64,000 bases of DNA. It comes from Primorskyibacter sedentarius (GTDB lineage: Bacteria; Pseudomonadota; Alphaproteobacteria; Rhodobacterales; Rhodobacteraceae). The stretch is taken from contig NZ_SLZU01000002.1 of assembly GCF_004342065.1 (NCBI RefSeq), positions 62,001 to 126,000 of the forward strand. The letters are read 5' to 3'. The position numbers and the translations under genes are program-made. Positions 25,368 to 51,199 of the stretch are shown piece after piece; position 1 is the stretch's first letter; every line of letters begins with the position of its first letter. A model generated the notes under the pieces. It ran no database searches. It saw only the letters and a program-made list of their open reading frames with translations, and was not told the origin of the DNA.

Positions 25368-25454
25368 CCCTGTCACGAAAAAAACATTTTGCGTCAGACG
25401 CTTTCCGTGCCAACCTGAAGTTGCGTTTTTTAACAGCTGAAAGGAGGTGATCCA

Positions 25455-25511
25455 GTGTCGAGAGAGATGTTGGAGAAAGGTGTCGGAACAGTTCGGAGGA
25501 TGATCTGCTAG
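25455..25511 (+). CDS. Tiny reading frame (18 codons) behind a full-length SD
   Basis: GTG at 25455 opens MSREMLEKGVGTVRRMIC and stops at TAG 25509-25511. The SD core AGGAGG is seven bases before the GTG and sits inside a 14-base perfect complement to the 16S rRNA tail, far better than for any other gene in the window. The peptide is basic with a terminal cysteine, has no run of one amino acid (so no classical attenuator) and no membrane segment. I do not recognise it. It may be a real microprotein, a leader peptide, or part of an RNA that titrates ribosomes. Confidence 0.5.
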   Translation: MSREMLEKGVGTVRRMIC

Positions 25512-25581
25512 GGCAGCCCTTGGCAGACCCAAAGTCCGAATTGGCGAGAGTCTGAACCGACGCCCGCCTCCCGAGTTCTCG

Positions 25582-25614
25582 AAGGGCCGTCCCGATTTGG
25601 GCGGCCCTTTTTGT
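25582..25614 (+). terminator. Strong rho-independent terminator of the small unit
   Basis: AAGGGCCG at 25582-25589 pairs with CGGCCCTT at 25602-25609, extended inside by CCC/GGG, and is followed by a run of T ending TTTTTG. It lies 50 bases before arfB, so arfB must have its own promoter. Confidence 0.85.
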
Positions 25615-25664
25615 TGTCCCATGCCGCTCGGGACAAACCGAAATTTGACTGCTAAAGAAGACCC

Positions 25665-26084
25665 ATGTTGCGCATTAACGATCAGATCACCATCGAACCC
25701 TGGGAGCTGACAGAGCAGTTCACCCGCGCCTCTGGCCCCGGTGGCCAGAACGTCAACAAGGTGTCAACCGCCGTTGAACTGCGGTTCGAGGCAGAGCGTT
25801 CCCCCAACCTTCCCGGCCCGGTCAAAGCCCGGCTTCGACGTCTGGCAGGACGCCGCTGGACGAAGGAAGGCGCGCTGGTGCTTCAGGTTGACGACACCCG
25901 CTCGCAGGCGCGCAACCGCGAGATCGCCCGCGAACGTCTGGCAGAGCTGATCCGAAAGGCTCTGGAACGGCCAAAGCGGCGCATTCCGACGAAGGTATCG
26001 CCCAACCAAAAGCGCAAACGGGTCGAAGCCAAGAAAGCACGGAGCGAGGTCAAGGCGCTGCGCGGCAGGGTCGATGAAGGCTGA
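25665..26084 (+). CDS. arfB: Ribosome-rescue peptidyl-tRNA hydrolase ArfB (YaeJ)
   Basis: The 139-aa protein has the GGQ motif in TRASGPGGQNVNKVSTAVELR near residues 21-41 and a basic C-terminal tail (PKRRIPTKVSPNQKRKRVEAKKARSEVKALRG) that enters the mRNA channel of stalled ribosomes. It releases nascent chains from ribosomes without a stop codon. Its length and both parts match the family. The start ATG is preceded by AAGAAG. It converges with pncB with a nine-base gap. Confidence 0.93.
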   Translation: MLRINDQITIEPWELTEQFTRASGPGGQNVNKVSTAVELRFEAERSPNLPGPVKARLRRLAGRRWTKEGALVLQVDDTRSQARNREIARERLAELIRKALERPKRRIPTKVSPNQKRKRVEAKKARSEVKALRGRVDEG

Positions 26085-51123: not shown

Positions 51124-51199
51124 GCCCCAATAGCTCAGCTGGTAGAGCAACTGTTTCGTAAATAGTAGGTCGGCGGTTCGAGTCCGTCTTGGGGCACCA
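51124..51199 (+). tRNA. tRNA-Thr (anticodon CGU)
   Basis: The 76 bases fold into a full cloverleaf: acceptor GCCCCAA/TTGGGGC, D arm GCTC-AGCTGGTA-GAGC, anticodon arm ACTGT-TTCGTAA-ATAGT (one G-U pair) with anticodon CGT, T arm GGCGG-TTCGAGT-CCGTC-type with the TTCGA core, and an encoded ACCA end. It reads ACG codons (threonine). Confidence 0.95.

What the first reader, a model, noticed from the sequence alone, without database searches (positions are those of the whole stretch)
25440..25614. Tiny transcription unit whose SD is a 14-base perfect complement of the 16S rRNA tail
AAAGGAGGTGATCC at 25440-25453 matches the whole anti-SD region of 16S rRNA. Seven bases after its core a GTG opens an 18-codon frame (MSREMLEKGVGTVRRMIC), followed by a hairpin and a strong terminator, all in under 180 bases. 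No other gene in the window has an SD of this length. Possible roles are a very highly translated microprotein, a leader peptide, or an RNA that binds 30S subunits. The peptide has no amino-acid run as in classical attenuators.
Basis: partly seen in the sequence, partly recalled or inferred. Interest (0 to 1): 0.75.

Follow-up and report, generated by a model that had tools for sequence, protein, structure and literature searches.

The report
Tiny translated RNA matching 16S tail
A roughly 180-base stand-alone RNA gene, kept across many Alphaproteobacteria, carries a ribosome-binding site that matches the tail of 16S rRNA and a tiny reading frame whose start and stop are preserved although its peptide is not, which suggests that being translated is part of how this RNA works.

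Summary
AAAGGAGGTGATCC (25440-25453) occurs once in the 5.07-Mb assembly; the region matches 163 of 198 genomes of the window's family, the window included. It is a distant relative of the Rfam sRNA family CC2171 (RF01867; 39 bits, cut-off 75).

New here: the frame is under selection. 72 of 74 Rhodobacterales-type sequences stop at codon 19 with TAG, TAA or TGA, none earlier; TGG never occurs (9.0 expected). Other orders start with GTG, ATG or TTG and encode different peptides. So start and stop are kept, not the peptide; length is fixed in the main type and in five of eight divergent copies. In this lineage SD and start codon are predicted to be paired, with covariation in two inner helices.

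It is a stand-alone gene: it stays when arfB is displaced or not found, and neighbours differ in other orders. Best reading: a small RNA that 30S capture and short translation switch between folds. Gating, trans targets and expression are inferred; no RNA-seq or ribosome profiling was available. An arfB leader or a functional peptide is less likely.

The parts
25389..25416 (+). weak promoter candidate (TTGCGT, 16 nt, CAACCT), which would put the RNA 5' end some 15-20 nt before the SD
   Evidence: Read by eye. In relatives the best -10-like box starts 25-29 nt before the SD in 77 of 106 sequences of other orders and in at least 36 of 76 Rhodobacterales-type sequences (positions listed). Against: for this very sequence the scan chose another site, and the Rhodobacterales mean score hardly exceeds shuffles (7.83 vs 7.63).
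25439..25455 (+). 17-nt complement of the 16S rRNA 3' tail (GAAAGGAGGTGATCCAG), the SD
   Evidence: 16S tail read in relatives; variation in relatives
25455..25511 (+). 18-codon reading frame, GTG start, TAG stop (MSREMLEKGVGTVRRMIC)
   Evidence: stop at codon 19 in 72 of 74 distinct Rhodobacterales-type sequences
25443..25449 (+). 5' arm of helix P1 (GGAGGUG, the SD core)
   Evidence: MFE fold; mean unpaired probability of the SD core 0.02 over 67 Rhodobacterales-type RNAs
25565..25571 (+). 3' arm of P1, an internal anti-SD (CGCCUCC); a pairable form is kept in 53 of 57
25451..25474 (+). hairpin P2 that encloses the GUG start codon (UCCAGUGUC/GAUGUUGGA)
   Evidence: consensus fold
25479..25486 (+). 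5' arm of P3 (GGUGUCGG)
   Evidence: arm-swap test, 16 of 2000 permutations as good
25557..25564 (+). 3' arm of P3 (CCGACGCC), in the conserved CUAACCG..CCUCC stretch
25489..25543 (+). arm P4, holding codons 12-18 and the stop codon
   Evidence: cognate arms pair better than swapped arms, 0 of 2000 permutations
25511..25519 (+). GGGCAGCCC motif at the stop codon (GCAGCC starts 58 nt after the start codon)
   Evidence: motif at 57-59 nt in 59 of 78 Rhodobacterales-type and at 56-61 nt in 20 of 147 other rows
25581..25614 (+). intrinsic terminator
   Evidence: a terminator-like hairpin, loosely scored, in 134 of 141 sequences of the two main groups

Best explanation
A stand-alone small RNA gene, a distant relative of the Caulobacter CC2171 sRNA, that ribosomes must engage. 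Shown by sequence comparison: a conserved complement to the 16S tail, a start codon at nearly fixed spacing, a frame with a selected stop, a fold that pairs the SD and start codon (predicted, in Rhodobacterales), and a terminator. Inferred: at rest the RNA is closed, with SD and start codon paired (P1, P2). A free 30S subunit competes for the SD through up to 17 base pairs and initiates; the ribosome melts P1-P4 and ends at the stop codon beside the GGCARCC motif. Whether the RNA is being translated therefore sets its fold, and with it its stability and the exposure of the C-rich CUAACCG..CCUCC stretch, which could pair with SDs of other mRNAs. On this reading the act of translation matters and the peptide does not. 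Likelihood by step: stand-alone structured gene 0.9; translated in vivo 0.8; selected for translation rather than for the peptide 0.65 (lowered from 0.7 because three divergent copies have longer frames and some synonymous variation exists); translation gating of a trans-acting RNA 0.4.
For: Region found in 163 of 198 genomes of the family, window included; model R1 found 7 of 20 listed misses at E <= 1e-4 and two more weakly, and 8 of these 9 hold vut, arfB or both in the fetched 3 kb. 100 of 385 Alphaproteobacteria match R1 at E <= 1e-4 (my count of its rows; about six cover only the SD part). The 17-mer AAGGAGGTGATCCANTG is in 26 of 86 Alphaproteobacteria and 1 of 213 other Pseudomonadota (counted from its listing). 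Stop at codon 19 in 72 of 74, three stop types, none earlier, TGG 0 against 9.0 expected, 0 of 20000 shuffles. Start codon GTG, ATG or TTG. Five of eight divergent Rhodobacteraceae copies have exactly 18 codons with unrelated peptides (L306, L307, L311, L313, L314). P4 arm swap 0 of 2000, P3 16 of 2000. SD core unpaired probability 0.02, start codon 0.09, n = 67. Promoter-like box at a fixed place in other orders. Neighbours change while the RNA stays.
Against: No expression, ribosome-profiling or binding data were available. Frame length is not universal: three divergent Rhodobacteraceae copies have 24-26 codons (L308, L309, L312), other orders mostly 14-35. The closed fold is not class-wide: in the main group of other orders the SD core is unpaired with probability 0.36, the start codon 0.48 (n = 67). 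P1 shows no clear covariation (131 of 2000), as expected with an invariant SD. RNAalifold on the MAFFT alignment did not recover P3 or P4. For P4 the cognate arm is only at the 21st percentile of swapped arms at the median; permutations do not correct for relatedness, nor does the stop test. Three divergent copies keep only AAAGGAGGTG of the complement (L311, L313, L314), so the full tail match is not always needed. 11 of 20 listed family misses stayed without a match. No trans target was identified.
Confidence: 0.5

Rival explanations
1. 30S decoy: the RNA ties up 30S subunits or initiation complexes through an over-long SD-aSD duplex and so tunes or stores ribosomes; the short frame only lets bound ribosomes leave.
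For: The SD core is kept in all 29 relatives found by DNA similarity. Where the base after GGTG changes it is A to G, which keeps a G-U pair with 16S, in 10 of 14 cases (the other four are C). A six-base SD is more efficient than longer ones in E. coli (PMC2176067, abstract).
Against: Usually one copy per genome; selection on the stop codon is not needed for a static decoy; SD predicted closed in Rhodobacterales. It would need very high abundance, which is unknown.
Confidence: 0.17
2. Microprotein gene: the 18-residue peptide is the product.
For: Selected start and stop; within the main Rhodobacterales type MSRxxLExGVGT is well kept, codon 8 is Arg or Lys in 59 of 64, and codons 2, 6, 8, 10 and 11 show synonymous alternatives; 33% of 54 newly found translated small frames of S. 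meliloti lie on annotated sRNAs (PMC10117765, passages read).
Against: Peptides are unrelated between lineages, even at the same locus. At codons 3, 7 and 12 no synonymous alternative is seen (AGA 58 of 64, GAG 64, ACA 63), as expected for a constraint on the RNA.
Confidence: 0.15
3. Cis leader or attenuator of arfB, the ribosome-rescue factor downstream: untranslated RNA lets polymerase read through into arfB.
For: arfB on the same strand within 400 nt in 62 of 72 Rhodobacterales-type loci; GGGCAGCCCUU at the stop codon resembles the terminator 3' arm and could compete for its 5' arm (read).
Against: arfB lies further away in 4 and was not found in 6 of 72 with the RNA kept. Of 106 loci grouped as other orders only L138 held arfB, and L138 is a Rhodobacter that my grouping missed (99 of the 106 hold 800 nt or more downstream). 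The GCARCC motif is also kept where the terminator differs.
Confidence: 0.1
4. Chance match or antisense 16S gene remnant with no function.
For: The motif equals the antisense of the 16S tail, and true 16S matches turned up in other genomes (L223-L225, L234-L236, L315).
Against: No 16S sequence beyond the tail in the window; conserved in most sampled genomes of the family with frame and terminator.
Confidence: 0.01

Closest known systems
Rfam RF01867, CC2171 (Caulobacter sRNA)
   Same: Same 5' core (AACA..GAAAGGAGGTGATCCAGTGTC), similar length, terminator. Of the 30 best loci found with this model, window included, 28 carry AAAGGAGGTG(A/G)TCC and all 30 a short frame; the model itself contains this core, so its retention is partly built in
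   Different: Window copy scores 39 bits against a cut-off of 75, with mainly the 5' core and terminator aligned. Rfam types it as sRNA gene; the output mentions no frame
Dual-function sRNAs such as S. meliloti rnTrpL/peTrpL
   Same: Small regulatory RNA with a short translated frame (PMC10117765, passages)
   Different: rnTrpL is leaderless and comes from a trp attenuator, with a functional 14-residue peptide; here there is a full-length SD, no fixed downstream gene and no conserved peptide
Anti-SD sRNAs of Alphaproteobacteria (SisA-D of Caulobacter; other CCUCC families are recalled, from no call)
   Same: A stretch able to pair with SDs (SisA-D: PMC12559287, passages)
   Different: Here the CCUCC stretch is predicted to pair with the RNA's own SD, and the defining feature is the SD itself
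Extended-SD initiation sites of Staphylococcus aureus
   Same: Extended SD-aSD pairing close to the start codon, also at small frames (PMC13009471, abstract and passages)
   Different: Those are mRNAs of that species; here a separate RNA gene

Membership tests
RF01867 CC2171 | covariance-model score at or above the curated cut-off (75 bits) | tested here: not met
   39.0 bits, E 6.7e-7; 39 bits in the genome search. So: a relative, not filed as a member
RF01867 CC2171 | conserved 5' core around GAAAGGAGGUGAUCCAGUGUC | tested here: met
   alignment; L179-L208
RF01867 CC2171 | terminator hairpin at the 3' end | tested here: met
RF01867 CC2171 | consensus middle of the Rfam model | tested here: not met
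   middle left unaligned
Leader/attenuator of the downstream gene | stable association with one downstream gene | tested here: not met
   62 of 72 in Rhodobacterales-type loci; none of 105 in other orders once L138 is set aside
Microprotein gene | selected start and stop codon | tested here: met
Microprotein gene | amino-acid sequence conserved beyond RNA constraint | tested here: inconclusive
   unrelated peptides across lineages, but partly conserved within the main Rhodobacterales type; no formal dN/dS was computed
Dual-function sRNA | base-pairing regulation of a target in trans | not testable with these tools
   no targets or expression data
Dual-function sRNA | own promoter and terminator | tested here: inconclusive
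   terminator clear; promoter position supported in other orders, weak in Rhodobacterales

The most novel reading that the evidence does not exclude
A new kind of sensor RNA: a mini-message that carries the complement of the whole 16S tail, competes with its own internal anti-SD, and reports the supply of free, tail-intact 30S subunits through its own translation, the peptide being a by-product. Layouts of the same design in Planctomycetota, Myxococcales/Lujinxingiaceae and other groups would then be separate or ancient instances.
Probability: 0.3. Interest if true: 0.88.

Novelty: new variant of a known kind. Interest (0 to 1): 0.62.

Why it matters
An RNA family filed as sRNA in an important bacterial class appears to be translated by design: what evolution keeps is the ribosome-binding site, the start and the stop, not the peptide. 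If confirmed, it separates 'being translated' from 'making a peptide' as a function, gives a natural readout of free 30S subunits or of 16S-tail integrity, and offers a small, usually single-copy gene in genetically tractable strains (Rhodobacter, Ruegeria, Caulobacter, rhizobia) in which this can be tested directly. It also shows that RF01867 at its present cut-off misses this Rhodobacterales copy.

Tried and rejected
Chance or 16S remnant: rejected. Other known RNA family: Rfam at gathering level finds only a tRNA in the window; the next-best hits in the region after CC2171 have E of about 1 or more.

Leader of arfB and microprotein: kept as rivals, see there. An antiterminator made by GGGCAGCCCUU was set aside because the motif is also kept in relatives with other terminators.

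RNAalifold on the MAFFT alignment did not recover P3 or P4; the 3' half looks misaligned, so I used arm-swap permutations. These do not correct for relatedness. One search's first grouping put non-alphaproteobacterial loci among 'other'; searches exclude them, but some came back through L217-L239. L138, a Rhodobacter, fell into 'other'. The script searched for GGAGGTG, so that its invariance there is built in; the fair counts are the 29 DNA-found loci (all have it) and the 30 RF01867 loci, and even those searches favour copies that keep the core.

S. meliloti SEP1 (23 aa, highest translation efficiency among the new small frames; PMC10117765, passages) was considered as a possible homologue; its sequence is in supplements I could not read, so it is not used. 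Paper searches by name, sequence or description showed no study of this RNA's function in what was listed. One search found two papers naming CC2171 (PMC5596092, PMC11701678; passages read). One search found 30 papers with the 14-mer, of which 20 titles were listed; those look like users of 16S primers. One search matched 19,315 papers and listed five. PMC5521070 (passages) surveyed coding sRNAs but does not name this one and considered AUG starts only. PMC11005374 was searched for terms without a link to this RNA. Landt 2008 is not held. The statement that no frame has been described rests on these searches only.

Dropped rows: sequences over 93% alike, six loci without a regex-found terminator and L027; sequences over 86% alike and L113, L153, L163 left out of R1; ten sequences without a terminator left out of the folding averages.

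Full report
WHAT IS THERE. The stretch lies between a VUT-family transporter gene (Vut_1, to 25367) and arfB (RF-1 domain, 25665-26084), both on the + strand (the name arfB is my reading of the RF-1 domain and size). GAAAGGAGGTGATCCAG (25439-25455) is complementary to the last bases of alphaproteobacterial 16S rRNA; I read that tail in G075 (same family, four copies) and G211. The window genome's own 16S tail was not found in its draft assembly. The 14-mer occurs once in the assembly. A GTG follows at the usual distance and opens 18 codons ending in TAG (25509-25511); an intrinsic terminator ends at about 25614. The 175 bases fold 5.5 standard deviations better than shuffles.

CONSERVATION. 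A DNA search with 25375-25625 matched 163 of 198 genomes of the window's family at E <= 0.001, the window included (taken as Rhodobacteraceae from the named relatives). Of the 20 misses that were listed (35 in all), a 48-position sequence model (R1) found 7 at E <= 1e-4 and two more weakly; 11 stayed without a match. Eight of the nine hold vut, arfB or both in the fetched 3 kb; L308 holds neither. Rfam's CC2171 model hits the window at 39 bits, E 6.7e-7, below its cut-off of 75, and matches 49 of 240 Alphaproteobacteria, 7 of them over the cut-off; of 14 control genomes only Caulobacter vibrioides rings. R1 reports 155 of 385 genomes at E <= 0.01, but hits of about 19 bits ending at model position 28 look like 16S antisense (one such, L315, is 16S); 100 genomes have E <= 1e-4 (my count; about six of these cover only the SD part). 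In a sample of Pseudomonadota the exact 17-mer with an NTG start is in 27 of 299 genomes: 26 of 86 Alphaproteobacteria and 1 of 213 others (my count); in the phylum of G581 (Planctomycetota by the title of L044) 4 of 199, the seed included.

THE BINDING SITE. All 29 relatives found by DNA similarity keep GGAGGTG (28, L027). 22 have the whole 17-mer (21, plus L027); 4 differ only by A to G at the base after GGTG, which keeps a G-U pair with 16S; two differ in the first bases and one (L023) in the last. Of the 30 RF01867 loci, window included, 28 have AAAGGAGGTG(A/G)TCC and the other two depart only after GGTGAT; that model contains the core, so this is partly built in. Three divergent family members keep AAAGGAGGTG only and have the ATG closer (L311, L313, L314). 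So the ten-base core is the constant part and the full tail match is usual, not universal.

THE FRAME IS REAL. Among 74 distinct Rhodobacterales-type sequences there is no in-frame stop in codons 2-18 and a stop at codon 19 in 72: TAG 44, TAA 14, TGA 14. The other two frames have scattered stops. TGG, which independent change at two positions would give 9.0 times, is never seen (0 of 20000 shuffles; relatedness not corrected). In other orders start codons are GTG, ATG or TTG and frames mostly run 14-35 codons, with all three stops. A stop somewhere in that range is not rare by itself (about one in three random frames); the weight lies on the fixed position within lineages and the mixed stop types.

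THE PEPTIDE IS NOT WHAT IS KEPT. Peptides differ between orders, and divergent family members have quite different 18-residue peptides, four of the five in a locus with vut and arfB: MSNWDLELEVRLTSGAKI, MSFEMVEQVVGFFGKDVT, MSIGIQEQLVRITCEVRI, MSSDRSEKMVRFQEEQLV. Against a strict length rule, three other divergent copies have 24-26 codons (L308, L309, L312). In the main type codons 4, 5 and 13-18 vary in amino acid, while codons 3, 7 and 12 show no synonymous alternative, which points to constraint on the RNA. Codons 2, 6, 8, 10 and 11 do show synonymous alternatives and codon 8 is Arg or Lys in 59 of 64, which a peptide constraint would also give. No formal dN/dS was computed.

THE FOLD. In the MFE the SD core pairs with CGCCUCC at 25565-25571 (P1), the start codon lies in hairpin P2, and most of the frame lies in P3-P4. 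The SD partner keeps a pairable form, C(A/G)(C/U)CUCC, in 53 of 57 aligned sequences. Swapping arms between sequences costs 3.1 kcal/mol on average for P4 (0 of 2000 permutations as good; median rank of the cognate arm 0.21), 0.27 for P3 (16 of 2000) and nothing clear for P1 (131 of 2000), as expected with an invariant SD. Over 67 Rhodobacterales-type RNAs the SD core is unpaired with probability 0.02 and the start codon with 0.09; in 67 of the main group of other orders these are 0.36 and 0.48. RNAalifold gives P2, three pairs linking the SD to a shifted partner, a small helix at the stop codon and the terminator, not P3/P4.

A STAND-ALONE GENE. In other orders a -10-like box starts 25-29 nt before the SD in 77 of 106 sequences; in Rhodobacterales-type at least 36 of 76, with scores close to shuffles. 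vut is within 250 nt upstream in 70 of 73 Rhodobacterales-type loci and arfB within 400 nt downstream in 62 of 72, further in 4, not found in 6. Of 106 loci grouped as other orders only one has arfB and vut, L138, which is itself a Rhodobacter. Neighbours elsewhere include an RNB/S1-domain gene (RNase R type) in Bosea L043 and Methylobacterium L065; in Bradyrhizobium L061 only an open frame on the opposite strand was seen downstream.

HOW IT MAY WORK. The constant parts are those a ribosome reads: binding site, start, stop. The predicted fold hides the first two in this lineage. I therefore favour an RNA that is opened by 30S capture and translation, so that its fold reports whether it is translated. 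What the open or closed form does next is unknown; pairing of the freed CUAACCG..CCUCC stretch with other mRNAs, or a change in stability, are the simplest options. The rivals (30S decoy, microprotein, arfB leader) are kept with lower weight.

NOVELTY. The family is known in part (RF01867; PMC5596092 lists a Mesorhizobium copy, MH_s33; PMC11701678 reports one added covarying pair for the family; passages read). I found no description of the frame, of the Rhodobacterales copies or of the constraint on start and stop in the searches named in Tried and rejected. Hence 'new variant of a known kind'.

Noticed in passing
window 25513-25518; L072, L156, L157, L169, L196, L246, L256, L258, L265, L266, L271, L288, L289, L306, L309, L312-L314: A GCARCC motif (mostly within GGAGCARCC or GGGCARCC) starts 57-59 nt after the start codon in 59 of 78 Rhodobacterales-type rows and 56-61 nt after it in 20 of 147 other rows, either just after the stop codon or inside longer frames (as ..EQP.. 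or ..GQP..). Unexplained.
   Followed up: partly
L041, L044, L101, L042, L276, L277 (Planctomycetota); L070, L083 (Lujinxingiaceae, Myxococcales); L049 (Krumholzibacteriia): The same 18-mer AAAGGAGGTGATCCAGTG with a frame of 9-19 codons, several followed by a terminator-like hairpin (by eye). Five of these genomes (those of L041, L042, L044, L049, L101) also have a true 16S tail elsewhere. Shared ancestry with the alphaproteobacterial RNA is open.
   Followed up: partly
L088, L119 (gammaproteobacterial MAGs): AAAGGAGGTGATCCAGTGTCTA followed within about 20-30 nt by a GGGAGCC..GGCTCCC-T hairpin; looks like a minimal version.
   Followed up: no
L060, L228 and L150, L257: The same SD stands before longer frames of 56-57 codons that look by eye like exported small proteins, in a Geminicoccaceae MAG and in G543.
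   Followed up: no
L043, L065: In Bosea and Methylobacterium an RNase R-type gene (RNB, CSD2, S1 domains) lies downstream of the RNA on the same strand; in Rhodobacterales it is usually arfB, a ribosome-rescue gene.
   Followed up: partly
G000, G055, G594, G595 and others: 8 of 10 genomes searched show no 16S tail with the pattern used, including single-contig ones; rRNA may be masked or divergent in this collection.
   Followed up: no
window 51124-51199: tRNA-Thr (CGT), the only Rfam gathering-level hit in the window.
   Followed up: no
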